From: Schizochytrium sp. TIO01
Taxonomy: Eukaryota > Sar > Bigyra > Thraustochytrida > Thraustochytriidae
DNA: 64,000 nt
Direction: 5' to 3'
NCBI GenBank assembly: GCA_004764695.1
Contig: SMSO01000005.1
Coordinates: forward strand, 1,383,501 to 1,447,500
The notes under the pieces are model-generated. The model saw only the letters and a list, made by a program, of their open reading frames with translations, was not told the DNA's origin and did not search any database. Position numbers and translations under genes: made by a program. Shown here piece by piece: positions 17,636-50,971 of this stretch. The stretch's first letter is position 1; the number at the start of each line of letters is the position of its first letter.

Positions 17636-18937
17636 TCAATCTTCACCAGCTCCCAAATGTACAAGTAACTCGCAAAGCGCAGGATTATCAAAGAGAACAC
17701 TATGATCATCTTCATGGCCAGACTTTCCTGGTCGTGTAACAGATTTACAAGCAGATACCTCAATTCCGAGGGCTTCAAGCTCTTCAACATCCACATGGAC
17801 TTTTGACCCCTCTGCATAAACAACGCGTGTGATGTAAGCTGAGGGTGGAAGGTCTAGCTCACTGACATGGCGCAGCCTTGACCCTTTGCGATTGAGCGCT
17901 TTGGTGATGGCTTTGACAAAGCCAGACGCAGGAAGGTCTCCACTTTCCCGGTCCGGGGTTGAGTTTAAGAGTAGAATTTTGGGGGTATCTACTGCTGCAA
18001 TAGCTTCACCCATACCTGGCAGCACGAGGCAAGGAGCAATACTGGTATACAGTGATCCCATACCATAAACAATAGCTCGCGATTCACCAATAGCTTGGAG
18101 CACGGCTGGGTTTGGTTGAGGAGCAGTTTCGTGATCTCCGTCAGATGAGAGATAGAAAATTCTCGACACGGGGCTTGACATCGGTGCACTATCCTCCTTG
18201 GAGACAGTATTACTACCTGTAGACGGATGACTGATCTCATTTTGCCCAAGAATCTCTTCCCCAGACTCCAACTCGGCAGCGATAGTGATGCGACGCTCAC
18301 TGACGATTACAGGCAGTACATCCGATCTCGTTGCAACGCCCGAAACACGGTGATACATGAAAATGGCAGCCTCCATACTATTGAAAAAAGTGCGAGCACC
18401 AGCAAAAAAGAAATTGCCAATAGATCCATTCGTGTATGTGAACTTGCCAGCTTCGCGGCTTCCTAGAACTCCTGCCTGGAAATGTACCAAAAATGCGCGA
18501 ATGGTGTGTTTGTATGGATCACCAACATTTGCCCATAAGGTATGCGAGCCCTCCACAATGCGGAGCCATTCGTGGCGAGCGACGTCTTCATTTTCAGGAT
18601 CTAGACGGTGTGCCAGAAGGTTCCGAACTGCTGTTCCTTCGGGCGTGCGATCGTTACTGAGTCTCAGACATCTTGAGCGGATATCACCTACAGCGGGCCC
18701 GCCAAGAACGTCAATAATAACGCGAGTTGACCCTCCATCGTCCGAGACCGGAAGCACATAAGCCACCCGTGAAGTGTACTTTTTCAAGATACTCGCGGTT
18801 GAATTGAAGGCTGTTCCGCCCGAGAAAACCACAAGAGAGCCCTCGAGCCTTGCATCTGCGTCGACGTCGGAATCCTCACCGCTCACAGAGCTCCAGTTGC
18901 TCAGGGCACGGTGTTGCCGGCTATTATCAAGCTCCAT
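17636..18937 (-). CDS. CofD/YvcK-like (UPF0052) nucleotide- or phospholactate-transferase fold protein
   Basis: A 433-residue protein of the CofD/YvcK superfamily. The N-terminal GGTAFNS (40-46), PVSDDGGSTR (63-72) and GDIRSR (84-89) form the nucleotide-sugar-like binding site of this fold, and NVGDPYKHTIRAF and GSIGNFFFAGAR follow. Archaeal CofD makes the F420 precursor, while bacterial YvcK proteins bind UDP-sugars and affect cell wall and carbon use. Fungal and plant members exist with no settled role, so no reaction is assigned. The segment YGMGSLYTSIAPCLVLPGMGEAI near 300 is a typical family motif. The frame runs upstream to a TTG at 19042, but the first ATG is at 18937 and keeps the whole domain. 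Confidence 0.85.
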   Translation of the reverse strand: MELDNSRQHRALSNWSSVSGEDSDVDADARLEGSLVVFSGGTAFNSTASILKKYTSRVAYVLPVSDDGGSTRVIIDVLGGPAVGDIRSRCLRLSNDRTPEGTAVRNLLAHRLDPENEDVARHEWLRIVEGSHTLWANVGDPYKHTIRAFLVHFQAGVLGSREAGKFTYTNGSIGNFFFAGARTFFNSMEAAIFMYHRVSGVATRSDVLPVIVSERRITIAAELESGEEILGQNEISHPSTGSNTVSKEDSAPMSSPVSRIFYLSSDGDHETAPQPNPAVLQAIGESRAIVYGMGSLYTSIAPCLVLPGMGEAIAAVDTPKILLLNSTPDRESGDLPASGFVKAITKALNRKGSRLRHVSELDLPPSAYITRVVYAEGSKVHVDVEELEALGIEVSACKSVTRPGKSGHEDDHSVLFDNPALCELLVHLGAGED

Positions 18938-21620
18938 CGCCTGTAGTGTCGCTCCTGTGTTCGCAGCAGACCCGAACGTAGGCGCTGCAGAGTGGCGAGG
19001 TATCTCCTGGGCGTTGAGGGTTTGACGTTCGAGCGTCAGCAACTATAAAGAATCGCAAAGAAAGACTTCGAAGTTCTTTCTTCTTTCTTTTCTTTCTTGA
19101 GAACCAAAAGAAGAACTGAAATGCATGATAGATCCTAACAGACGATTATGTTCGATCACACTAGTAGACTTTAAACGTTCATAAGTAGAGTATACAAATT
19201 TGGCAACAGCATTTAGAATAATAATTAACGTGTAGGTAATAGTAGAAGTCGAATAAGAGCGACGCAATAGCAGCGTGAGAGAACGATTTGCAGAGCAAGA
19301 GAGGCAAGATCATGATAGCTATGGGTTGGTGACCAGAATATCATCGTATGTACATACGAAGCAAAATGAAGAGGCTGCAGTTGCTAAGATAGCCAGTAAA
19401 TTAGAAATAACCTACTACAGCAGTCCGTGCAGGAAGACCAACACTTGAAATATAACAACACACCCAAGGGCCCATTCACTTCGCTGCGTGGGGTGGAATC
19501 TGGAAACATGGTAATGAACATGATAAAAAAATTGGTATGTTTTTCATGTTTTTCCAAATTGTAACCAGGAAAACTAGGATCAGGACTTGGGGGACTGACT
19601 GTTATAAAGCTCATGACGATTGAGTTGTGCTGCTAGATTAAATGACCCAACGAGTTAGAGCCTGATAACTACAATTCGAAAAATGCTATTTCATAGTTGC
19701 CCACCTAAATGGGCTAGGTACGTAGCTCACAGTACCAATGCTTTATATGCAGAGCCTCAGAGCACGAGGATATACAACTAAAAATTGTGGCATCTCTTCT
19801 GTGAGTACAACAGGCGTACCATAGCCGTCGTCTAGAAAACGAAAAAACCGCAGGAACTTAGTGGGGCCAAAGAACATATCTAAAGTAGAAATAATAACCG
19901 TGGACAGAGTTCTCCTTGGCACAGCTCCAGTTGGTTGATATACACATTGCTTTCAAAATTCGAGGGTAGATTGAGTGAGCAACTTAGGTACTGACAAGAT
20001 AAGTTCAAGTGGGGGGGACAAGATCCAGTATGGTAATGTGACTGACATCATTCGAAAAGATGTTTTGGATAGTGTGCCTACAAAAGGCTCGCAGCTTGCT
20101 TTGGATGCAAGCAACTCGTTTTGAATATTGCAGGGTGAAAACGCCCACACCATGTAAAAAGCACGGAGTAGGTAGTATAACCTGCCTTATGTTGCGCGCA
20201 TGAATGGTCTAACGCCCCATATTTCCTCGTGAGAGGGAGCGAAGATATCGTGCAGCACGCCCGTCGATGAAAGCTATTCGTTCATCTCCCCCACCCACCA
20301 CGGCTTTTACTTGCCTATCGTCCATTAACCCACCCATTGCCAGGGTTGGTCTGCAAAAGCCTCAAATACATACAACTTGATTCAACGAAGCCAATATTTA
20401 TTCTTGTCAAAGATAGAAAACTGATCAATAATCTACATCATTCTATTGTACAAATATACATGCCTGACGCCGTCAGGCTTTATCACCATGCGCACCAGCG
20501 CGACATGGTCATGCGTCTCCAGAGAGTGGGGCTCTCTGGTACTCCACACAAAAGGGAATTGAATGGTGGCAAGCCTGACCAATTAGCTCCCACTACAACC
20601 AATCCTTCACTGCGTCCAAAACCCACTTTGTCCTCACAAAACTTCATATTTTAAACATATTTGTTTCTTTCAAATGATAAGAGAAAGTGTATGCTCCACT
20701 GACGATAGTTGAGAGGGAAAATATAAAATGAATAGCAGTGTGTTTTGGAGGTAGTTAATTCTTCCACGGTTGGTTTCCAAGTCGTGATGTAACAACCACC
20801 AAATCTGGGCAAAAAACCTGGCCACAGCCGCACAAACGCGACCTTCAGTATCACAAACTACCAAAACACCCTTCAAGCTTTGAGTAGCCCTAGAAATAGG
20901 TTGGTTTACACAATTCCAAACAATCTAATCACGCCATTGTTTGCATCAAATAGCACCACCACTTACTTAATTAAGCCTTCTAGTAGAGTCTCACGCACAG
21001 TAGGCAAGTCCTACTTAAGTTATAGCACTTTCGTAGGCGCAGCTAGGCATCCCATCGTTTCTTTATGGCTAAGTTGGCGTACTTCGGTGTCACTCGGCGT
21101 CACATTTGCGTATCCTCGTCGCCTGAATATAGTAAGGAGGGAGCCGCTCATTGTGGGTGGCGATACTCGCCTTGAGCTGCTGTTTAGGCCTTTTGGATTG
21201 CAGATGTGAAGCTCGAGCCGGGCGAGGAATGCTAAGTGCCGGTTTTTTCCCACTGCCTATAGTCCCCATAGTTCGTAGAGAAAGGGAGTGTTTCACTATG
21301 GATGGACTAAATACAGGGAATTAAACGCATTCGAAGTAGAGCATTTGAAACTTACTATAGGTTATAGGGTGTACATTACAGAAGGCTATTGGGCTATAGG
21401 TTACTTGGGGGGTTTTGGAGTGAACGAGAGCGCATGCTTTCATGATCGAGTTTCAACGAAGCAATAACTTCGCAACGATAGCTCACCCGCTGCTGAGCGT
21501 TAGCGTGAGGAGCTCGCGAGAACCTGAAAACGCGAGCGGCATCAGAGGCCTTCGGCTGGGCTCTATCCTGGCCTGCTCTGCGGTTTTGTGGAGAAGGGTT
21601 GTAAAGATTGTTGGGATATC
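18938..21620. other. spacer between divergent genes
   Basis: About 2.7 kb between the CofD-like gene (-) and the RAP1-like gene (+), so it should contain both promoters. A TTTCTT-rich tract lies near 19075-19100. No repeat array or gene is evident. A further 5' exon of the RAP1-like gene cannot be excluded. Confidence 0.55.
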
Positions 21621-23123
21621 ATGGACGGCCAACTCGAAGGCTTGACAGGAGCCAGGGGAGGCTACCCTGTAGAAGACGAAGCTCCAGACTCTATGGGGAT
21701 CTTTAAGGAGTGGCTATTCACGCTACCAACCGACTGCCCAAATCGCCGCGAAATCAAACGCGATATTCTTGAGAGCGGCGCAAAGATTGTAAAGAATGAA
21801 CCTGATGTCTTCAACAAGTACCAAACAACGATTCACCTCCGCCCGCGAACTTTTACTCGCGAAGAGGCCCTGGCGCAAGGAATGAACTGTAAGTCTTACA
21901 GGAGTATCGCACAGCGGAGCAAAGTGAAACTGTCGAACTTATTGAAAAGTAATTCGGTGAGAATGATCAACGTGGATCTTGGAATATCGTAAGGATGGAA
22001 TGAATATCTTGACTAACAAAAATTGCCTCCTCTGGTGATTGATGATGACCAATGTTGTGTGCTTTAATCTGATTCTACATTGGCAGTGAAGCTTGTTGTG
22101 GCCCTCGAGTATATTCGCGATTCTGTTCTTCATGAGGTCGCTCTAGATCTTGAACGTTACCGCCTATTCGGCGAAGAAGAGAACCCCCTTACACAGGCTC
22201 CTCATGAGTCTCAGATGAATGACGATGACGATGATCGCGTTGTACTCGGTAACCCAACCCAGCCTGATCCCCAAACTGATGCTACCAAGCAGGTGATGGA
22301 CACAGTGGAAGTCCCCCCTCGTCCTATGGAAGTAGACCACCAGGGTCATGTGACAGGCCATCATGATGACGTTCACGCAATGCAAGTTCCTACAACACCA
22401 ACTCGTGATGATACCACTGCAAGTCGTATGTCTAGCTCACGAAGGGGGGCTGTTCGAGGCAGCAAATTGAAAATGTGGACTACGGATGAGGTGCAAACAC
22501 TTGTGGAGTATATTCAGAAGCAAATCCTCGACGATGATGTACTTAGTGGCATGAAGATTTGGAAACAAGCAGAAGCACAGAATGTTCTTCCTGGTCGTAC
22601 AGCCCAGTCTATGCGGGAGTGCTATCGGCGGCGCGAGCTTGGCAAGGTGGCACGAGAGGCACTTAAGAATGGTGACACTTCGAGCGTTACTGCTTCTAGA
22701 ACCGCAGATATGAATCCTGATGCTGTAATGGAGCGCGGTGTAGTCTCCGGTATTCCAAACCTTGCCGAGATTATCGACCACCTCATTGAAAGCACAAACC
22801 GCAATTCACAAGATGTATTCTGGGCAATATACCAAACATCTGGGGACTTTAAGAAAGCTCGTTCTTTGCTTCTTGGGAGTTCGCCCGACTTTGCGCCATG
22901 GTCACCTGACGAGGACCAGCTGATCGAGCGTCTAGCACAAGGATTCCGTGCAGCTCTTTTGCAACACTGTAACTCAGATGGTGAACGTCTCAATGCCATT
23001 GTAAATTCTGTTGATGGAGGCATTGTCAATATGCAAGATCGGCATGACCTAGAGAAGTTGCTTTATTCGCGTACCCTTGACGAGTGCGCACAACGGGCTG
23101 TTTTCCTTCGACAAGAAAATTAA
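21621..23123 (+). CDS. RAP1-like (TERF2IP-type) telomere protein, two exons
   Basis: Join of 21621-21888 and 22087-23123, giving 434 residues. Three regions match the RAP1 plan in order. A BRCT fold spans about 26-117, beginning GIFKEWLFTLP, with ESGAKIV and closing ALEYIRDSVLHEVALDLERYR, which resembles the human BRCT end. A Myb/SANT domain lies at about 218-273 (KMWTTDEVQTLVEYI, GMKIWKQAE, PGRTAQSMRECYRRRE), of the RAP1 type. A C-terminal RCT-like region at 313-434 has LAEIIDHLIE, YQTSGDFKKARSLLLGS, WSPDEDQLI and LDECAQRAVFLR, close to the human order. The linker is acidic and Asp/His-rich. RAP1 binds shelterin/telomere partners and regulates telomere length and silencing. The BRCT is completed only by the splice. 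Alternative: another BRCT-Myb protein. Confidence 0.8.
21889..22086 (+). other. predicted spliceosomal intron in the RAP1-like gene
   Basis: A 198-bp interval starts with the consensus donor GTAAGT and ends with TTGGCAG after a mixed-pyrimidine stretch. It splits a codon after its first base (T at 21888, TG at 22087-22088). Removal keeps the frame and joins the two halves of the BRCT domain. Read-through would stop at TAA near 21990. It is the only intron I can support in the window. Confidence 0.8.
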
Positions 23124-30100: not shown

Positions 30101-30420
30101 TTCCTTCATACCTTGGATTACACAAAAGCCTGAAACACTCCCAAGGTAGCCCCCAATCTTGCATATGCTAGAGATTTCCCTAGCCGCCCTGATCGATGGT
30201 GCGGAGATGAGGTGCGTTTAGCCTACTATAGAGTGCCTGTATTCTGTACTTGTTTTCCTGAGTAGAAGTGAAGTAAAGACCTTTTGTACATTATGGTATA
30301 GAATATAGCGTATAGTAAGTTGCCTCAAAAGTAGACTAAACCACCTCGGTTATTCGCCTCGATCAAATCTGCAATCAAAAGCTTCGCAGTCCGTCCGTGC
30401 GAGCACCACTTGCTTGAAGA
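27181..30420. other. spacer with no convincing gene
   Basis: About 3.2 kb. Between about 27600 and 28600 several frames read as broken, coding-like peptides, which may be a decayed transposon or pseudogene (see findings). A GTTT-rich tract is at about 29150-29205 and AAGAA-rich DNA at about 29320-29350. The last 150 bp probably hold the promoter and leader of the first dehydratase gene. Confidence 0.5.
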
Positions 30421-32205
30421 ATGAGCTCCGTCGGCCGGCGCAGCGCCGCTGCGTTGACCCCTCTCGCGCCTCGCGTGACTGCCGCCTATGCTGGCGCCCG
30501 CGGCTTCGCTGCCGCTGCCGCTGATGCTGATGGCTTGAACAAGTACAGCCGCGTTATTACGCAGCCCAAGAGCCAAGGCGCTTCTCAGGCCATGTTGTAC
30601 GCCACTGGCATGAACGAGGCTGACATGAACAAGCCCCAGATTGGAATCTGCTCCGTCGCCTACGAAGGCAACCCCTGTAACATGGGTCTCTATGAGCTCT
30701 CCGAGAAGGTCAAGCAGAGTGTTGTTGATGCTGGTCTTGTTGGATTTCGTTTCCACACCATTGGTGTCAGTGATGGTATCTCCATGGGAACTGACGGTAT
30801 GCGTTACAGTCTTCAGAGCCGTGACATCATCGCCGACTCTATTGAGACTGTCATGAGCGCTCAGTGGTACGACGGTAACATTACCCTCCCCGGCTGTGAC
30901 AAGAACATGCCGGGTGCTCTTATTGCTATGGGCCGCTTCAACCGCCCGTCCCTCATGGTCTACGGAGGTACCATCAAGGCTGGCTGCTCCAGCAAGGGTG
31001 ACAAGCTTGATATTGTTTCCGCTTTCCAGAGTTACGGTCAGATGATCACCGGTCAGATCTCTGAAGAGGAGCGTCAGGATATTGTCCGCCATGCTTGCCC
31101 TGGACCTGGTGCTTGCGGTGGTATGTACACTGCCAACACCATGGCAAGTGCCATTGAGGCTATGGGTATGGCCCTCCCGTACAGCTCCTGTGCCCCTGCT
31201 GAGTCCAAGGAGAAGCGTGAGGAGTGTGCTCGCGCCGGTGAGGCCATCAAGAAGCTCATTGAGCTCGACCTCAAGCCGCGTGACATCATGACCCGCGCCG
31301 CTTTTGAGAACGCAATGACCCTCATCATGGCTCTTGGTGGCTCCACCAACGCCGTTCTTCACTTGATCGCCATGGCCCGCGCTGTCGATGTCCCTCTTGA
31401 CATCAACGACTTCAACAAGATCAGCGACCGTGTGCCTTTCATTGCTGACATGAAGCCCTCCGGCAAGTACGTCATGGAGGACCTCCACGAGGTTGGTGGC
31501 ACCCCGGCTGTGCTCAAGTACCTCCTCGAGAAGGGCATGATCGACGGATCCTGCATGACCGTCACCGGCAAGACCCTCGCTGAGAACCTTGCTGAGCTCC
31601 CTGGCCTCAAGGAGGGCCAGGACATCATCCACACCGTTGAGAACCCCATCAAGGAGACTGGTCACTTGAACATTCTCTACGGTTCCCTCAGCCCGGACTC
31701 TGCTGTTGCCAAGATCACCGGCAAGGAGGGTATGGAGTTCGAGGGCCCTGCCATCTGCTTCGACCGCGAGGAGGACATGGTCGCCGCCATCGAGGAGAAC
31801 CGCATCAAGAAGGGTCACGTCATCATCATCCGCTACCAGGGCCCCAAGGGTGGCCCCGGTCTCCCTGAGGGTCTCAAGGCCACCAGTCTTGTGATTGGTG
31901 CCGGTCTTGGCCCGTACTGTGCTCTTATCACTGACGGTCGCTTCTCTGGTGGCTCCACCGGCTTTGTGATTGGCCACGTGTGTCCTGAGGCTCAGGAGGG
32001 TGGTCCCATCGCTCTTGTCAAGGACGGTGACAAGATCAAGATTGACATCCGCACCCGCAAGATGGACCTTCTTGTCGATGATGCCGAGCTCGAGCAGCGC
32101 CGCAAGGCCTGGGTTGCCCCCCCTCTCAAGTACACCAAGGGTGTTCTTTACAAGTACATCAAGAACGTGCGCCCTGCCTCTGAGGGCTGTGTCACTGATG
32201 CCTAA
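30421..32205 (+). CDS. ILV3/ilvD: dihydroxy-acid dehydratase, copy 1
   Basis: A 594-residue Fe-S dehydratase that makes 2-keto acids from 2,3-dihydroxy acids in valine, leucine and isoleucine synthesis, normally in mitochondria or plastids. The first ~40 residues are rich in Arg, Ala and Ser with no acid until later and fit a mitochondrial targeting peptide. The three cluster cysteines sit in [19 protein letters not shown] and [18 protein letters not shown]. The Lys/Arg-rich Mg site and the C-terminal [14 protein letters not shown] are intact. Length is normal. The ATG at 30421 is the clear start. Its neighbour downstream is a close paralogue, which shares a perfectly identical block. Confidence 0.95.
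31495..31982. repeat. 488-bp block identical to 34769-35256
   Basis: Base-by-base comparison of the two dehydratase genes shows no difference across this whole block (offset 3274). The nearest mismatches are at 31494 and 31983. Synonymous sites would normally differ, so recent gene conversion is likely. Confidence 0.92.
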
Positions 32206-33697
32206 GTACATCCCTGATCGTCCCTCTCATGCCATGTTGCGTGCATGTTCTTGAGAAACGACACACATATCATCCTATACTCGACCATGTCACGTAAGTA
32301 AATGTAGATTCTACATTCGTTTTTTTAATACGTTTTAATCAGCTTCTGTTGATGATTCCCGCCTTCTGCATTCCGTTTGTTTAAGGTTTTGCTGTTGATT
32401 TCACATTCCTCCTTTTGGTTTAGTTGCTCCAAATTTATATTAGTGCTAGGGTTTGAGCTTTTATTTAAGGAAAGAGTTTGGTAAGAGCGAGTATGTAGGT
32501 AGTCTTAGTACTCAAGTTTCATGACCAAAAAGCATGAATTGTTATTTACCTCCTCATGACTAGGATTAGACAACTTTCTTATCTTACTTATTATACTATC
32601 TTGAAGCTAAAGGGTCGCACATCAGTTCAACAGTCATGACCCGACTTGATCCTTTGGCTTTTGAGTTCAAAATGTATCTTGCGTATTAAAACAGTATCAG
32701 ACTAGTACAATCTACATGGCTAGTGGAAATTAAACCCTATCTCAGCCTAACAAAAGCATTTTCTGCACCGTCTTGGAACAACACAGTATTGATTTTTACG
32801 TTCGCCATAGCCAACACTTATGTCTCAGAAAGTAGGGTAGTCGCATCATGAGATTGATCGATTAAAATTAACTGAATCAAAGTTGAGGAACATTGCGGGA
32901 AGCGCGTTTGCAAATGCGCTTAATCTCTTTCGAAGATGACGACAAATCATCGGTTGATTTACTGGATCAATTGGAAACAGTGAACACGCAGGCATTGCCA
33001 AAACATAGTTCAGGTCAATGTCTCAACAGAACCTGAATGAATCCTGCCTGCATAGTTTTCTAAATGTATTATCGCCTGCTAATGCGTACAATAACATACA
33101 AATTAAAATAAAAGGTGGTCCTCCCTGAGTTCATCCTTGGCTTCGTTTCAGAGCAGTAGGCACAAGATATCTAGGAGCTGCTGCCGTATTGAGTATGAAG
33201 AATTGCAAGTTAGCTGTCAAACCATCGATTTGCACATCGCTTCAGAAGTTGGCAATTAGGTACCTACCTACCTTACCAACCAACTCAAAACATTTCTAGT
33301 CAGGACCATAGGGGCATAGTGTGACAAAGTTATCTAGCTCAATATAAAGCGCATATTGTAGCATATGTAAATATCATCTCAAAACACCCATACTACACCC
33401 TTTATTTCAATTAGAAGAAAAGGTCGAATTGAGGGTAGAGGGACCCTTATAGTCTGTCTCAATCAAAAGCCAGGATTCAGGACTACCTGTGCGGAATCCA
33501 AATCAGAGACACGAGAACTCGATGCAACCAACTCCTTGTAAGGAGAAGGGATGTTGCCAGTGCAGATTTTGAGTAGCAAAACCGATTGGAGAGAGATCTC
33601 CGACGCGACTGATTGAATTGCAGCTCGACAGGCTTAGGTTTGATTGAAGAAGTTATTTTTATTAGTCGTAGTCCCGTTTGTATTGCAAAGAAGAGAA
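32206..33697. other. spacer between the two dehydratase genes
   Basis: About 1.5 kb, unrelated to the sequence upstream of copy 1 as far as I can see. It should hold the copy 2 promoter. No gene or long repeat seen. The start of copy 2 was placed at 33698, the first ATG near the conserved region. Confidence 0.55.
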
Positions 33698-35479
33698 ATG
33701 TCTGGAGTCACAAAACGAAGCGCCGTGTTTTTGACACCACGCGTCTCTGCCGCTTACGGCGGAGCTCGTGGACTGGCATCTGCTGTTGATGGCGGAGATG
33801 TTGGTGTGAGAAATAAATACAGTCGCGTGATTACTCAGCCCAAGAGCCAAGGTGCCTCCCAGGCCATGTTGTACGCCACTGGCATGAACGAGGATGATAT
33901 GAATAAGCCCCAGGTTGGAATTTGCTCCGTCGCCTATGAGGGTAACCCATGTAACATGGGTCTCTACGAGTTCTCTGAGAAGGTCAAACAAAGCGTCGTT
34001 GATGCAGGGCTCGTAGGATTCCGTTTTCACACTGCTGGCGTAAGCGATGGTATCTCCATGGGAACGACCGGTATGCGCTACAGTCTCCAAAGTCGTGACA
34101 TCATCGCCGACTCTATTGAGACTGTCATGAGCGCTCAGTGGTACGACGGTAACATTACCCTCCCCGGCTGTGACAAGAACATGCCAGGTGCTCTTATTGC
34201 TATGGGTCGCTTCAACCGCCCGTCCCTCATGGTCTACGGAGGAACAATTCGTGCTGGGTGTTCTAGCAAGGGTGAGAAGCTTGATCTTGTGTCTGCTTTT
34301 CAGAGTTATGGTCAGATGATCACCGGCCAGATCACGGATGAAGAACGCCAGGATATTGTCCGCCATGCTTGTCCTGGACCTGGTGCTTGCGGTGGTATGT
34401 ACACTGCCAACACCATGGCAAGTGCCATTGAGGCTATGGGTATGTCCCTTCCTTATAGCTCCAGTGCTCCTGCAACCGCACCGGAAAAGATTGAAGAGTG
34501 TGCTCGCGCCGGTGAGGCCATCAAGAAGCTCATTGAGCTTGACCTCAAGCCGCGTGACATCATGACCCGCGCCGCTTTTGAGAACGCAATGGTTCTTACG
34601 ATGGCCCTTGGTGGCTCCACCAACGCCGTTCTTCACTTGATCGCCATGGCCCGAGCTGTCGATGTCCCTCTTGATATCAACGACTTCAATCGTGTTTGTG
34701 ACAAGACCCCTCTTTTGGCTGACATGAAGCCCTCCGGCAAGTACGTCATGGAGGACCTCCATGAGATCGGTGGCACCCCGGCTGTGCTCAAGTACCTCCT
34801 CGAGAAGGGCATGATCGACGGATCCTGCATGACCGTCACCGGCAAGACCCTCGCTGAGAACCTTGCTGAGCTCCCTGGCCTCAAGGAGGGCCAGGACATC
34901 ATCCACACCGTTGAGAACCCCATCAAGGAGACTGGTCACTTGAACATTCTCTACGGTTCCCTCAGCCCGGACTCTGCTGTTGCCAAGATCACCGGCAAGG
35001 AGGGTATGGAGTTCGAGGGCCCTGCCATCTGCTTCGACCGCGAGGAGGACATGGTCGCCGCCATCGAGGAGAACCGCATCAAGAAGGGTCACGTCATCAT
35101 CATCCGCTACCAGGGCCCCAAGGGTGGCCCCGGTCTCCCTGAGGGTCTCAAGGCCACCAGTCTTGTGATTGGTGCCGGTCTTGGCCCGTACTGTGCTCTT
35201 ATCACTGACGGTCGCTTCTCTGGTGGCTCCACCGGCTTTGTGATTGGCCACGTGTGCCCTGAGGCTCAGGAGGGCGGTCCCATCGCTCTAGTCAAGGACG
35301 GTGACACCATTAAGATTGATGTGCGTTCTCGTAAGATGGACCTTCTTGTCGATGACGCCGAGCTCGAGCAGCGCCGCAAGGCCTGGGTTGCCCCCCCTCT
35401 CAAGTACACCAAGGGTGTTCTTTACAAGTACATCAAGAACGTGCGCCCTGCCTCTGAGGGCTGTGTCACTGACGAGTAA
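33698..35479 (+). CDS. ILV3/ilvD: dihydroxy-acid dehydratase, copy 2
   Basis: A 593-residue paralogue of copy 1 with the same Fe-S cysteines ([27 protein letters not shown]) and the same C-terminus. The N-terminal ~43 residues are different in sequence but again Arg/Ala/Ser-rich and acid-free at first ([20 protein letters not shown]), so another organelle presequence is likely. The coding DNA is a mosaic: some stretches are identical to copy 1 (for example 34769-35256 and parts near 34098-34185 and 34354-34440), others differ at many synonymous sites. The frame opens upstream from a TTG at 33644, but the ATG at 33698 is better. Catalytic residues appear intact. Confidence 0.93.
34769..35256. 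repeat. 488-bp block identical to 31495-31982
   Basis: Partner of the identical block in copy 1; see that entry. It lies inside the copy 2 coding region, with mismatches at 34768 and 35257 marking its edges. Confidence 0.92.
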
Positions 35480-44796: not shown

Positions 44797-47700
44797 GAGC
44801 TCAAAAAAAAAACTCGCGGGGGGGGGAGAGAACATAGGAGAGAACAGGCGAAAATCTGGGGGGAAATTCTACTTTTCCTCACAAAATCATTGTGTTGGCG
44901 AGTTTTTTGATATGCATTTTATAAGATATATGGCTTTAACTGTGGGACGCGGCATGACATTTAGCTTTTAATTTAAAACTCTTTATGAATTTTGTTACTG
45001 GTTTTAGCAAGAACACTCAGTGATAATCTTCCTCTAATTCCACTGAAAATAATTAAGTGTATCACCACTGGGTCTCCTCACAAGGATGTTACATATTTCT
45101 GGTAAACTGGCACATCCACCTCAACGAATACTACGCCGACGTTTCACTGATGCAATTTAATACTGGACTTTGATGGTGGTTAAGCTCGTATTCCTTGGGC
45201 TCGAATACATGTGCAAAGAGACTTGGAAATATTCACTGGATGATCAGGGCATATTAAATGATACTTTGAGGTAGCGAAACTCAACAACGAGGTAAACATC
45301 AAACACGAAAATGATGCAATTTTCATCACGTTGCAAGCTTCGCCAGGCGACAGCCACTCCCGGGGACAATGATCAGGAATCCTTGAGTCATGAGGATATC
45401 AGAAAGGATCTGGAAGGCTTAAATGAAAGCGCTAATGTAGATGAGGAGAAGCGCGAGACTACGATCACCTTAATCCAACAAAAATTTATCGACAGCTGCA
45501 AAGACACACTTGATAAAATGGATATCAAAACATGCCAGTCCCTGTACGACATTGTTCCTGATGGGACAATCACTTGGCTCCAGAAACCCAAACTGCCGAA
45601 AGTAAAAAGAGGTCAACAAATTGCACCAGAGTACTTTCACCAGCGCAGCGTTGGGTTATGGCATCCAGCAAAAATGTATGCGTCGATGAACAATCGCATG
45701 CCATGTCCATACTGCAACCAAAAAGCGCATTTGGGTGAACCTCTTGTCAGCGTCTCTGGTGACGATGGCTTCTGGGCACCAAATTACCGAGAGATTGCTG
45801 GTGCGACTGCAAATTGGTTTCTCGTGGCTCGAAAGTATAAATGTAAAAAGTGCAATAAAGAGTTTCGCAATACAAGTGAGGATGTTCTTCGTTTGTGCCC
45901 TGCTGACGTACGGATACGCTTTGGCCTGACCTTAACCCCACGCCACGGGATTGAAACAGAGGTTAGCCAACGTCTCAGCCAATTGTGGTTGAAAAGTCCC
46001 GCGTGGGCTGCAGATGCTTTCAATGAGGCTCAGGTACGGAACCATAATCGTCTAGAGTACTTTTACTATGCATCAAGCTTAGGAGAACACACTCGGCGCT
46101 TCGATGAAGCTGGCCCCAATACAATCCCAAGTTTTTTTCAAAAGCAAGCAGTGAACTCGACAAATACGCTCAAATCTAAGATTCAATTCCAGCCCGAAAA
46201 ATGTTCTGCTGAGGTTTTGAGAAAGGAGACGGCTGCTCGTGAATTACTGGAATTTGATTTAAAGCAAATCAAGAGTTTGGGAGAAAAAAAGATTAAAATC
46301 CTAAAGTCTGCTCTCAATATCTCTACAGTTGTTGATGTCTTCCATGAGCTTAAGAACATCCTAGATACAAAAAACGGCGAGAAAATCAAGCAACTCAGCA
46401 CTGCTCGACGTGAGAGGGACCGAACGAGGGTTATAGAGGGTTGGAAAGAACTTTTGGAGACTACAATCAACCAGATACTCCGAGAAAAGGACTTACTGAG
46501 CGTGGAGTATGCTCGAATGGTTATCCAGCAGCGCAACGAGCGACTTGCCCGAGACAAGATCAATAAAGAATCTGCCGAGCAAGCAGCTGAGCAAGCGAGC
46601 AAACAGGTCGACCAGACAAATCAATCAGCATCGTGCTCAAATGAAGAAGAAACGCAAGAGAAATCAATCACGGCTCCTGAAAATTTTGGCAACTTCGACA
46701 TGGAGTACAACGGATATCGATTAAGCTCCAAATTTCTCGACGAATTATGTATTGACCAGTTTAAAGGAGAGGCAAGACCTTTGCTTCGCGAAATTGCGTC
46801 ATACAGCGCCAGGTATATCGCTATCGATTGCACGTTCCGGTTTCCCGAGCGCTGTAAACTTCGATTCCAAGACCAAGACAAATCCTTTAGGATATACCAG
46901 CCATATCAAGCCCTACTCACAATCAGTAACGAACACAACCAGATTATATTCTATTGTGGGTTGGCGAACAGTGAGAACGAGAGGGAAATAAGAGAAGCTT
47001 TAGGACGATTCGTCAAGCTACGCCAGGAAATGCATGGTCGGGATTACCGGCCTGAATGTATTTGGACAGATACATGTTGTGGAAAATTAAATAAATGCCT
47101 ATCACAAATTTTCAAGGGAGTCCCCATCAAGCTCGATTTGTTTCACTGGCTCAAGCGTTGGGAGCAAATAATGGTGAAAAGCAGCAACGAAAGCCGAGCA
47201 CCTCGTACTGCATTCATGACTGCATTAGCAAACGCTGTTCTTCAGCGCGACCACAAGCGAGTGAAGCAGGTTCAACAGGAACATAAGAGTAAGAGCAACT
47301 TCACAAAAGATCGGCTTATCAATCAAGCTGTTGAAACCCGAATCCCACAACCAGAGGTTCTATATAAGCGCATCATGGAAGTTTTTAAGACTCACTATAT
47401 TATGAACTCGAAGATGGATCTCAGTGCTGACCTGCTTCATCGCGTACGAGAGCGTTGCAAACCAAGATCTGGTAACGCTTGTGTAGAACATTTCGGACCC
47501 TATCCAAATGGGTTTCGGCATGGATTATTTTTATCTAAGACCGCCACAGGGGTTGGCCTAGACAAGTATATTGCAGGCCTTTTTGAACATGTTCATAAGG
47601 GCTGCTTGAGCGACCCTCCAGGTCTCGTTCTACAGACTAAAATCAATGGCAAAAATCATCTTGTGGGAAATAGAGGTACTAATGCAAATGAGGTGTTCCA

Positions 47701-50700
47701 TCGTATGTTGAACCAGGCTGTTGCAAGTGCTACCATTGGTATTGTTCGTGCTGACGCGCTACTCACCAAAGTGGTTGCTAAATACAATCGTTCCAGAATG
47801 ATTGAGATAAAAGGTTTACCTTCGTATTTAATTCACCAACCATTCAGCCACCACCTCACGATAAACTCCCTCGTCAATGATGCGTTCAATGGTAAAATCG
47901 AGCATAATGAGCTCCCTTATCCAGATGCACGACTGCCTTTGTGCGTTTCTCATGACTTACATATGGGATTCAGCATGATGCCAAGTGTTGGTTCTGTTTT
48001 GGAGTCTAATCATATAATGAGGACGCGAGCCACTGTGGTGCCGATTTTCTTCGACAGCACGGAGAACTCAACACTGGCGCATGCCGTAGAGCAAGCCATT
48101 GCTGTGATATTTGCCTTTGCAAAAGCTCTCGCACGACCAGAACATAAAAGAAAAGCCATAAGTTACCTCCAGAAAGTTCTTCGAAAACTAACGGGAGGAG
48201 GGGTACCCACCGAAACAGATCGATCAGTCCTCGACGAGGCTGGCATCGATAAAAAATTGAAAGACCACATCAGCTTGCGCCTGATAGCAATGAATATACT
48301 AGTAAACGGCAGCCTTTTCACTAAAGGAGAGAACGGTGACAAGCCTGAACCTCAAGGTGATATTGGTGTTCAGAGAGTCCTTTCAACTTGTGTAGAAATT
48401 CTTGAAGATTGTATAAGTACAGACTCTGATTCTGAGGAATTTAAAGAAAGGATCAAAATATCGTGCGTACAGTTAGAACCGCCTGAACACGAGGATGACC
48501 CAATATCAGAATTAGTGGTTGGTAGCTCAAACGCTGATATTCATCTGCACATTGGATGTTCTGTTCGAAAAAATATTACAAATCTTCCAAAAGCGCAGCT
48601 TGCTTCTGCGCCAAGGGTAAAAAAAGGCTTGTTCCCTGCCGAAGAGGCAAGGCCTGACCGTACCCGTTGGATTGCATTCTGTGAAGATCCTTTGCCAAAT
48701 CGATCTGGAACCTCTCTGACTGATGACGTCTCGTGGGAGAGAGTTCTCAGCGAAAATAGTGGGGATGATGCCGAGCAAACGGTGGAATGTAGGAAGAAGC
48801 AGCAGCAAGTACTGTCGGCATCTTATACAACTTGCGGCATAAAAGGCTCTGGTTGGGCCAGACCTCGCCCCAAGGACCTCATAGGAGCTAGCACGCCTTG
48901 CCCATTCAAAATGAAAGGTAAGCCCGAACAGCAGGACAAAGTGGAGCAAGACTTTTATTTATATCTTCTTAAAACCAAAAACTTCAATCGAAAAGCTGCG
49001 CCCATTCTGTCTAACAGCTTCGAAAGCTTTGCACAGTTGTGGAATCGATACGCTTGTCCTGCAGGGGATCTTGACGGTCTTTTCCTTCCGAAGCTTGATT
49101 CCGTGCAGATCTCTCATCCGGGCGACTTGAGGGAATATCTGAAACCAAAGACGGCGTTCCTACTCAGGCAATATGCAGATTTTCTGAATCAGAGAGATAG
49201 CATTTCTGCCAAAAATCGAAAACTAATGCTAGCGTCCAAGTTAGAGCACATGACTGAGCCATTGGTCGACGTACCTGTTACTGCAGATGGTGCTTTGGTG
49301 CATCCCTTGCATCTATTGGAAAGTATCAGAGAGCTGGACTATTCAACACGTTGCAATCTGGAAGCGAACATCATAAACGAAGAACTCCTCTCTCGGCATC
49401 CCTCTCTGGAACGATTTGACACAGCAGAGTTGAGGTCAATTATGACGAAGAACTTCCCCCTTGCACCTCAACAAACCTTTTTCCAATTCAAGCATTTGAA
49501 AAGTAAACGAAAGAGCATCTGGCGAGCTCCTGAAAATCTGAGCAAGTGCAAGTACTGTCAGTCTTGCTATGCACCAAGAGAAGGGCACCCCACGCCATTT
49601 GGCGCTGAGTGCAAACTTCAGACCTGCGAAGCAACAATTTCTGCCCTGGACAGTTTACCACCCACAGACTTTTTCGGGTCTGAAAAAAGAAGGGCTCAAG
49701 CGATAGCCCCTAAAGAACATACTGTAGATGTCCCCAAGGTTGGAAATGTACGCGGTGTCAAAATGCAACCAAGACAAGGAGGACCTGTGCGAACGTTTAA
49801 CTCAAAATGCACAGCGTTCTGGAAAGCTTCAGCAAAGGTGTTCAGTCTTCTGAAGAGCTCCATTTCTCCCAAGCACTCTGTTTTTACAAGTGGAAAACAC
49901 TTTGTTCATTCAAACAACATCACTATGAATCATACGTTTCTAGAGTTTGGCATGTGTCAAAGGCTGTTCTTAGACTCTCATGGGAACTTGCCATGCTCCG
50001 AATCAACTAACCCCGAATCTTTCGGGGAACCTTTATCATGGATGCAAGGGGATGCAATGGATGCATGGTGTGCTACCTGCTGCGAAGAAAATCGCGTTAT
50101 GAAGCCTGCAGAAAGAAAGAAGTGTCACGGAACCGCATTTGTACCTAGCACCGCACTTCAATTCCTCACAAGTTCGGTAGATGACCGACACGATTTGTTT
50201 ATATCGTCTGTATGCAATGCGATTGCAAATGCCACACCAAGAGGCCATTTTCAAAAGGACAGCTCCTCAACGAGGTCAATCTATATTCCAGATGTCATTG
50301 AATATGTTATGCTACCGTTTTGTACAGGAAGTCATTGGCAGCTTCTTTATTTTAACCAAAGGCAAGCGCGTGTTGTCTTTTACGACCCATTAAGTACCTT
50401 GCATGAACCGAGCCACGTGATGAAAGTATTTGGCGATGCCATCCGTCTTTTTGGAGCTGAAGACTGGGAGATCGAGATTAGGCGAGGCAACCAAAAAAAC
50501 GGTGTGGATTGCGGATATCACGTATCTACTCTAATGTATACTTTATGGCGTGGAGATGTAGCTGAAGAAGTTGCTCACCAGGAAATTCAAGATGAACATA
50601 TGAATGAAGTTTATCGTAGGGCATTTGCGATGGACATTGTTCGTGGAATCTGGAGGGTTTACAATATTTCATATTTACAGGTCTATTGGGCAGCCAGATC

Positions 50701-50971
50701 TGACGCAAGGGGGTCTACGCATTTAAATTTAATCTTAGCTGCGATCAAAAATCCCAACCAAGCAATGTCAAGTCAAAGTCAAGCTCAAGCGCCTCAGATT
50801 TCAGCGACTGAGTTTTCAAGTCAAGTCGCCGTTACTGTTAGCTAGACTCATATAATATATAAGAACTAAGAACAGAACACCGTTCCAGAACACCCTTGAG
50901 AACACTGTTCTAGAACACCAATGAGTCTCCCATATTAATTCATAGGCGTTCTAAGCGCGAGTTTTTTGCTC
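44797..50971. mobile_element. candidate DNA transposon with transposase-Ulp1 gene
   Basis: A proposed 6.2-kb unit around the 1844-codon gene. At 44797-44818 there is GAGCTC, A10, then CTCGCG. At 50955-50971 the other strand reads GAGC, A6, CTCGCG, so a short imperfect inverted repeat brackets the gene. Inside each end are copies of AGAACA (44829, 44841; 50869, 50887, 50899, 50912), which could be transposase-binding sites. No clear target-site duplication was found, and a further CGAGTTTTTTGA at 44899-44910 complicates the left end. Boundaries are therefore tentative. Confidence 0.45.
45311..50845 (+). CDS. transposase-like protein with C-terminal Ulp1 cysteine protease
   Basis: One uninterrupted frame of 1844 residues. 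An N-terminal zinc ribbon has C132-x2-C135 and C178-x2-C181. A DDE-like core follows with IAIDCTF (D506), IWTDTC (D587), a KLDLFHWLKRW segment (D609) and GTNANEVFHRMLN (E794), the order and context seen in RNase H-fold transposases. More cysteine clusters lie near 1413 (CKYCQSC) and about 1580-1600. The last ~200 residues form a Ulp1/C48 protease: GSHW (H1675), YDPLS (D1692), an oxyanion Q1728 and NGVDCGYH (C1734), so the triad looks complete. Such proteases deSUMOylate. MULE/Kaonashi and KDZ elements carry similar fusions; the exact superfamily is not settled. No break suggests recent activity or domestication. Confidence 0.82.
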   Translation: MMQFSSRCKLRQATATPGDNDQESLSHEDIRKDLEGLNESANVDEEKRETTITLIQQKFIDSCKDTLDKMDIKTCQSLYDIVPDGTITWLQKPKLPKVKRGQQIAPEYFHQRSVGLWHPAKMYASMNNRMPCPYCNQKAHLGEPLVSVSGDDGFWAPNYREIAGATANWFLVARKYKCKKCNKEFRNTSEDVLRLCPADVRIRFGLTLTPRHGIETEVSQRLSQLWLKSPAWAADAFNEAQVRNHNRLEYFYYASSLGEHTRRFDEAGPNTIPSFFQKQAVNSTNTLKSKIQFQPEKCSAEVLRKETAARELLEFDLKQIKSLGEKKIKILKSALNISTVVDVFHELKNILDTKNGEKIKQLSTARRERDRTRVIEGWKELLETTINQILREKDLLSVEYARMVIQQRNERLARDKINKESAEQAAEQASKQVDQTNQSASCSNEEETQEKSITAPENFGNFDMEYNGYRLSSKFLDELCIDQFKGEARPLLREIASYSARYIAIDCTFRFPERCKLRFQDQDKSFRIYQPYQALLTISNEHNQIIFYCGLANSENEREIREALGRFVKLRQEMHGRDYRPECIWTDTCCGKLNKCLSQIFKGVPIKLDLFHWLKRWEQIMVKSSNESRAPRTAFMTALANAVLQRDHKRVKQVQQEHKSKSNFTKDRLINQAVETRIPQPEVLYKRIMEVFKTHYIMNSKMDLSADLLHRVRERCKPRSGNACVEHFGPYPNGFRHGLFLSKTATGVGLDKYIAGLFEHVHKGCLSDPPGLVLQTKINGKNHLVGNRGTNANEVFHRMLNQAVASATIGIVRADALLTKVVAKYNRSRMIEIKGLPSYLIHQPFSHHLTINSLVNDAFNGKIEHNELPYPDARLPLCVSHDLHMGFSMMPSVGSVLESNHIMRTRATVVPIFFDSTENSTLAHAVEQAIAVIFAFAKALARPEHKRKAISYLQKVLRKLTGGGVPTETDRSVLDEAGIDKKLKDHISLRLIAMNILVNGSLFTKGENGDKPEPQGDIGVQRVLSTCVEILEDCISTDSDSEEFKERIKISCVQLEPPEHEDDPISELVVGSSNADIHLHIGCSVRKNITNLPKAQLASAPRVKKGLFPAEEARPDRTRWIAFCEDPLPNRSGTSLTDDVSWERVLSENSGDDAEQTVECRKKQQQVLSASYTTCGIKGSGWARPRPKDLIGASTPCPFKMKGKPEQQDKVEQDFYLYLLKTKNFNRKAAPILSNSFESFAQLWNRYACPAGDLDGLFLPKLDSVQISHPGDLREYLKPKTAFLLRQYADFLNQRDSISAKNRKLMLASKLEHMTEPLVDVPVTADGALVHPLHLLESIRELDYSTRCNLEANIINEELLSRHPSLERFDTAELRSIMTKNFPLAPQQTFFQFKHLKSKRKSIWRAPENLSKCKYCQSCYAPREGHPTPFGAECKLQTCEATISALDSLPPTDFFGSEKRRAQAIAPKEHTVDVPKVGNVRGVKMQPRQGGPVRTFNSKCTAFWKASAKVFSLLKSSISPKHSVFTSGKHFVHSNNITMNHTFLEFGMCQRLFLDSHGNLPCSESTNPESFGEPLSWMQGDAMDAWCATCCEENRVMKPAERKKCHGTAFVPSTALQFLTSSVDDRHDLFISSVCNAIANATPRGHFQKDSSSTRSIYIPDVIEYVMLPFCTGSHWQLLYFNQRQARVVFYDPLSTLHEPSHVMKVFGDAIRLFGAEDWEIEIRRGNQKNGVDCGYHVSTLMYTLWRGDVAEEVAHQEIQDEHMNEVYRRAFAMDIVRGIWRVYNISYLQVYWAARSDARGSTHLNLILAAIKNPNQAMSSQSQAQAPQISATEFSSQVAVTVS

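What the first reader, a model, noticed from the sequence alone, without database searches (positions are those of the whole stretch)
21621..23123. A RAP1 (TERF2IP-type) telomere protein with full BRCT-Myb-RCT plan in a protist
Seen: spliced 434-residue protein with a BRCT fold, a RAP1-type Myb (GMKIWKQAE, PGRTAQSMRECYRRRE) and a C-terminal region with SGDFKKARSLLLGS, WSPDEDQLI and LDECAQRAVFLR in the same order as human RAP1. Known: RAP1 family members in animals, yeasts and trypanosomes. Inference: a shelterin-like telomere complex in this lineage, with the human-like RCT hinting at a TRF2-like partner.
Basis: partly seen in the sequence, partly recalled or inferred. Interest (0 to 1): 0.85.

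Follow-up and report, generated by a model that had tools for sequence, protein, structure and literature searches.

The report
RAP1-type telomere protein in a protist
A protist, probably a single-celled marine one, appears to carry a version of the animal and yeast chromosome-end protein RAP1, beside other telomere genes and a five-letter telomere repeat, which suggests that this protective machinery is old.

Summary
The gene is real and the reading is mostly right. Two exons (21621-21888, 22087-23123, +) encode 434 residues; the GT-AG intron falls inside the BRCT domain. Pfam finds BRCT_2 (E 6e-5) and, as best Myb family, Myb_Rap1 (E 1.7e-5), both slightly under their curated cut-offs. The C-terminal piece, scanned alone, reaches Rap1_C at E 0.057 over profile 4-84/84; its first half resembles human RAP1 (p 8.6e-5), its second half does not (p 0.78). 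The order is that of RAP1. One copy was found in a 64-Mb genome that also encodes TERT, POT1 and a 757-residue protein ending in a TRF-like telobox Myb; 7 of 40 contig ends read carry (TTAGG)n, 12 being all N. A TRF2-like partnership is plausible but untested: no TRFH domain was detected, by weak tests. The organism is probably a thraustochytrid (inference). Verdict: a divergent RAP1 orthologue, a new member of a known family.

The parts
21621..21888 (+). Exon 1 of the RAP1-like gene (residues 1-89 and first base of codon 90)
   Evidence: ATG at 21621 is the first Met of the open frame
21889..22086 (+). Intron, 198 bases, GTAAGT...TTGGCAG, phase 1
   Evidence: the exon 1 frame closes at 21992 and the exon 2 frame opens at 22068
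22087..23123 (+). Exon 2 (rest of codon 90 to stop; residues 91-434)
21699..22163 (+). BRCT domain, residues 27-115, interrupted by the intron
   Evidence: PF16589 BRCT_2 E 6e-5, 23.7 bits (cut-off 27.3), profile 2-86/86; human RAP1 BRCT p 2.5e-4, 0 of 2000 shuffles
22164..22478 (+). Acidic linker, about residues 116-220 (residues 119-215: net charge -11); probably disordered
   Evidence: charge; disorder is inference from composition
22479..22634 (+). Rap1-type Myb domain, residues 221-272; basic third-helix region (net +5 over 22 residues)
   Evidence: PF08914 Myb_Rap1 E 1.7e-5, 25.6 bits (cut-off 27.1); charge; human Myb p 1.2e-3, 2 of 2000 shuffles reached the score
22752..23120 (+). Putative RAP1 C-terminal (RCT) domain, residues 312-434; human-like first half (about 313-366), then, by eye, an insert of about 30 residues relative to human
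   Evidence: PF11626 Rap1_C E 0.057, 13.9 bits (cut-off 24.2), profile 4-84/84, residues 325-431; first half p 8.6e-5, second half p 0.78 against human RCT

Best explanation
It is a divergent, single-copy orthologue of the telomere protein RAP1. Most likely it sits on the organism's (TTAGG)n telomeres and restrains recombination and end-joining there, held mainly by its C-terminal RCT domain binding a duplex-telomere protein; the best candidate found is the 757-residue telobox Myb protein at L070:2216-4489 (G000:C32:2755216-2757489). The BRCT and Myb would serve as further interaction surfaces; with its basic third helix the Myb may also touch DNA. Shown here: gene model, domain matches and their order, telomere repeat, presence of POT1, TERT and a telobox protein. 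Inferred: telomere residence, the RCT partner, and the function. The confidence given is for RAP1 orthology; recruitment through the RCT by a TRF-like protein I put at about 0.55, and the first two rivals are alternatives within RAP1 orthology.
For: Myb_Rap1 1.7e-5 and BRCT_2 6e-5 in RAP1 order. Rap1_C 0.057 library-wide for the C-terminal piece (about 2e-6 for that one pre-named family among 24,736), profile 4-84/84; human RAP1 as control returns the same three families. Pairwise to human: RCT p 4.6e-4, BRCT 2.5e-4, Myb 1.2e-3. Of 816 window frames of 40 codons or more, this one has the highest score for human RCT and for human BRCT; 0 of 846 overlapping fragments of 20 other long frames reach its RCT score. 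Only one copy found. POT1 E 2.5e-13, TERT, telobox Myb matching TRF1 (1iv6_A) at E 1.1e-6 and TRF2 at 1.7e-5. A review states that all known RAP1 homologues have BRCT, Myb and RCT, and that human and S. pombe RAP1 reach telomeres only through TRF2 and Taz1 (PMC10813129, passages).
Against: No domain reaches its Pfam curated cut-off. Rap1_C appears only when the C-terminal piece is scanned alone, and Phage_Gp84 (0.034) ranks just above it there; Rap1_C gives no match in the genome-wide scan. The second half of the RCT shows no pairwise similarity. Two other frames score higher with the human Myb. AlphaFold without relatives was poor (pLDDT 43; 68.8 for a 66-residue core) and the core found no RAP1 structure. 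No relative was found in two collections that do not aim to hold eukaryotes. The pairwise tests were chosen after the likeness to human RAP1 had been seen.
Confidence: 0.83

Rival explanations
1. RAP1 by descent but a direct duplex-DNA binder, as in budding yeast, with its Myb reading TTAGG and no need of a TRF partner.
For: The third-helix region is more basic than in human RAP1 (net +5 against +2 over 22 residues); no TRFH match in the genome, though that test had no working control.
Against: One Myb only, whereas the DNA-binding C. albicans and T. brucei RAP1s have a Myb and a Myb-like domain (PMC10813129, passages). The whole Myb carries about the charge of the human one (net +2 against +3). 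A telobox TRF-like protein is present.
Confidence: 0.2
2. A RAP1-derived protein that has left the telomere and works mainly as a transcription or signalling regulator.
For: Divergence of the RCT second half. Mammalian RAP1 has roles apart from telomeres (PMC8657031, start of abstract in the listing).
Against: POT1, TERT, a telobox protein and telomere repeats are present, and only one RAP1 copy was found.
Confidence: 0.12
3. Not RAP1: an unrelated protein that combines a BRCT domain and a Myb-like domain, with a UBA-like helical C-terminus.
For: No hit reaches a curated cut-off; residues 315-362 match 1wj7_A weakly, E 0.19 (that this chain is UBA-like is recalled); Phage_Gp84 ranks above Rap1_C for the C-terminal piece.
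Against: On exon 2 the Rap1-specific Myb model scores 26.1 bits against 20.4 for PF00249 (summed over two stretches) and 13.6 for Myb_DNA-bind_6, and three RAP1 families appear in RAP1 order.
Confidence: 0.07

Closest known systems
Human RAP1 / TERF2IP (8rd4_D, 3k6g_A, 7oz0_A, 1fex_A)
   Same: BRCT, one Myb and RCT in this order; similar length (434 and 399 residues); similar first half of the RCT
   Different: Myb to RCT spacing about 40 residues instead of about 115; by eye an insert of about 30 residues in the RCT; no pairwise similarity in the RCT second half; more basic Myb third-helix region
Trypanosoma brucei RAP1
   Same: A protist RAP1 with BRCT, Myb and RCT that interacts with a TRF homologue (PMC10813129, passages)
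   Different: TbRAP1 also has a Myb-like domain, for which there is no room here; its sequence was not compared
Fungal Rap1 (S. cerevisiae, S. pombe)
   Same: BRCT, Myb, RCT; S. pombe Rap1 is recruited by the telobox protein Taz1 (PMC10813129, passages)
   Different: S. cerevisiae Rap1 binds duplex telomeric DNA itself (same passages); fungal sequences were not compared with this protein except through the Pfam profiles

Membership tests
RAP1 | N-terminal BRCT domain | tested here: met
   BRCT_2 E 6e-5, profile 2-86/86, residues 27-115; 23.7 bits, under the cut-off of 27.3
RAP1 | Central Myb of the Rap1 type | tested here: met
   Myb_Rap1 is the best Myb family, E 1.7e-5; 25.6 bits, under the cut-off of 27.1; two other window frames score higher with the human Myb by raw pairwise score
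RAP1 | C-terminal RCT domain | tested here: inconclusive
   Rap1_C E 0.057, 13.9 bits against cut-off 24.2, profile 4-84/84 on the C-terminal piece; not listed for the whole protein. First half p 8.6e-5, second half p 0.78 against human. Fold searches uninformative
RAP1 | Located at telomeres, through a TRF/Taz1-type protein or DNA | not testable with these tools
   needs localisation or pull-down
Shelterin-like complex | Duplex telomere binder with a telobox Myb at the C-terminus | tested here: met
   sequence only: L070:2216-4489, Myb at residues 690-738, best PDB match TRF1 (1iv6_A) E 1.1e-6; DNA binding not tested
Shelterin-like complex | TRFH dimerisation domain in that protein | tested here: inconclusive
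   PF08558: 0 matches, but no control genome rang; not among the families; pairwise to recalled human TRF2 TRFH p 0.018 and 0.022 for the N-terminus, 0.38 for residues 241-360
Shelterin-like complex | POT1 | tested here: met
   PF02765 E 2.5e-13 in the genome, 4.4e-14 in the frame, both over the cut-off
Shelterin-like complex | TPP1 | tested here: inconclusive
   PF10341: 0 matches, no control rang
Shelterin-like complex | TIN2 | not tested
   no search made

The most novel reading that the evidence does not exclude
A TRF-RAP1-POT1 set, kept in a lineage far from animals, fungi and trypanosomes and re-tuned to a five-base (TTAGG) telomere, would mean that the TRF-RAP1 module was already present in the last common ancestor of eukaryotes.
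Probability: 0.5. Interest if true: 0.75.

Novelty: new member of a known kind. Interest (0 to 1): 0.58.

Why it matters
RAP1 is described in animals, fungi and kinetoplastids; whether the TRF-RAP1 module is ancestral to eukaryotes depends on finding it in other supergroups. A RAP1 together with POT1, TERT and a telobox protein in one probable stramenopile genome makes that testable. [quoted passage not shown] The (TTAGG)n repeat adds a natural test of how telobox proteins adapt to a shortened repeat.

Tried and rejected

Relatives were sought in genome contigs and viral contigs; none was found. These collections do not aim to hold eukaryotes.

PF11626 against the six-frame genome gave 0 matches at E 0.001, and no control genome rang, so that search says little.

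A second Myb at residues 360-373, the best stretch of PF00249, was considered and rejected: only 14 residues match, at the WSPDED motif of the RCT. A UBA-like domain (1wj7_A, E 0.19) covers the same helices and is too weak to decide.

Of the 34 telobox-search matches 15 became loci; my script read 11 of these properly (the 4 others, L057, L062, L063 and L067, gave stray frames), and 19 were not looked at. Another telobox protein may have been missed.

Subtelomeric rDNA as a mark of Aurantiochytrium was not confirmed: no Rfam family within 3 kb of the 7 telomeric ends, and the genome-wide SSU search did not complete twice. The two Aurantiochytrium papers seen in a reference list (Collier 2023, Chung 2025) are not held, so whether its telomere repeat is already reported was not settled.

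Full report
Gene. Exon 1 (21621-21888) and exon 2 (22087-23123) on the + strand are separated by a 198-base intron with a GTAAGT donor and a TTGGCAG acceptor; the joined frame gives 434 residues and a stop. Of 35 GT-AG pairs that keep the frame open in the interval scanned, two use the GTAAGT donor; the other one would remove 20 residues of the BRCT. Exon 2 lies in an open frame of 351 codons. The gene was found once in the 64.06-Mb, 37-contig genome, in which the window is C4:1383501-1447500.

Domains. Scanned whole against Pfam, the protein matches Myb_Rap1 (PF08914, E 1.7e-5, residues 221-272) and BRCT_2 (PF16589, E 6e-5, residues 27-115), each slightly below its curated cut-off; generic Myb models score lower (PF00249 E 0.0014 over two stretches, best at residues 360-373). 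Residues 301-434 alone match Rap1_C (PF11626) at E 0.057, from profile position 4 to 84 of 84; Phage_Gp84 is slightly ahead at 0.034 over 31 residues, and Rap1_C is not listed when the whole protein or all of exon 2 is scanned. Human RAP1 returns the same three families with strong scores.

Pairwise tests. Fisher's method gives 3.9e-8, an optimistic number because the comparison was suggested by the same likeness. Split in two, the RCT gives p 8.6e-5 and p 0.78. Controls: 0 of 846 overlapping fragments of 20 other long window frames reach the RCT score; among 816 frames of 40 codons or more, exon 2 ranks first for RCT and BRCT but third for the Myb, by raw score, which favours long frames.

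Structure. Predictions without relatives were weak (pLDDT 43; 68.8 for a 66-residue core), and searches with the core listed no RAP1. The fold is open.

Telomere setting. I read 3 kb at 40 of the 74 contig ends: 7 end in (CCTAA)n or (TTAGG)n in the orientation of telomeres, 12 are all N, and 21 have no array at the end. Six tandem CCTAA copies are found at 493 and 530 overlapping places on the two strands, against 1 and 2 for the reversed control; the listed places include one inside C4. Four tandem TTAGGG copies were found nowhere in the readable genome. The genome also encodes TERT (Telomerase_RBD E 2.8e-9; with RVT_1), POT1 (E 2.5e-13) and a weak STN1 candidate (E 0.0053, 20.4 bits against a cut-off of 21.5). 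TPP1 gave no match, with no control that rang.

A TRF-like candidate. A search with the human TRF2 Myb gave 34 matches; of 15 fetched I read 11, and the two best carry telobox-like motifs (the telobox is recalled). The first is at the C-terminus of a 757-residue frame (L070:2216-4489), whose best PDB matches are TRF1 (E 1.1e-6) and TRF2 (E 1.7e-5). This is the TRF/Taz1 layout, but no TRFH was detected (pairwise p about 0.02). The second (L071:3368-5212) has its Myb in the middle and a ubiquitin-like match at E 0.092.

Organism. Not named by any tool.

Mechanism. Human and fission-yeast RAP1 reach telomeres only through TRF2 or Taz1, while S. cerevisiae Rap1 binds duplex telomeric DNA (PMC10813129, passages). 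The single Myb here fits the first mode, so I take recruitment through the RCT by a TRF-like protein as most likely (about 0.55). The more basic third-helix region keeps direct DNA contact open.

Novelty. Searches of the paper library for RAP1 or shelterin with protists, algae, stramenopiles, oomycetes or the eukaryotic ancestor listed no title or abstract reporting RAP1 in this group; listings showed 5 of 5, 2 of 2, 15 of 857, 10 of 141 and 9 of 9 papers, and I read passages only. For TTAGG with thraustochytrids, stramenopiles, oomycetes or diatoms, searches listed 20 of 66 and 12 of 26 papers; passages in PMC9498494, PMC10767889, PMC12133305 and PMC7658794 did not assign TTAGG to stramenopiles, but several listed stramenopile papers that hold the letters TTAGG were not opened, the TeloBase database itself was not consulted, and subscription papers are not held. 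RAP1 in a protist is not new as such, since kinetoplastids have it. I file this as a new member of the RAP1 family, with the RCT still short of proof.

Noticed in passing
L005, L008, L012, L023, L025, L033, L042 (contig ends of G000): Terminal arrays of the pentamer (TTAGG)n, the repeat known from arthropods, in a probable stramenopile; four tandem TTAGGG copies were not found in the genome.
   Followed up: partly
L070:2216-4489 (G000:C32:2755216-2757489): 757-residue frame with a C-terminal TRF-like telobox Myb; candidate duplex-telomere protein.
   Followed up: partly
L071:3368-5212 (G000:C31:8230368-8232212): 614-residue frame with a telobox-like Myb (VDIKDKWRT) and a weak ubiquitin-like match, reminiscent of plant TRF-like proteins as I recall them.
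   Followed up: no
window 30418-32205 and 33644-35479: Two neighbouring dihydroxy-acid dehydratase genes, very similar by eye (identity not computed), each with a long open frame on the opposite strand.
   Followed up: no
window 45296-50845: 1849-codon frame with a Ulp1-type protease domain and DUF6729; perhaps the protein of a large DNA transposon (my inference).
   Followed up: no
G000:C4:589107-590444 and C30:1474872-1476209: Two PfaD-type PUFA-synthase matches of nearly equal score on different contigs.
   Followed up: no
window 17636-19042: CofD-like (2-phospho-L-lactate transferase) gene, E 3e-43, in a eukaryote.
   Followed up: no
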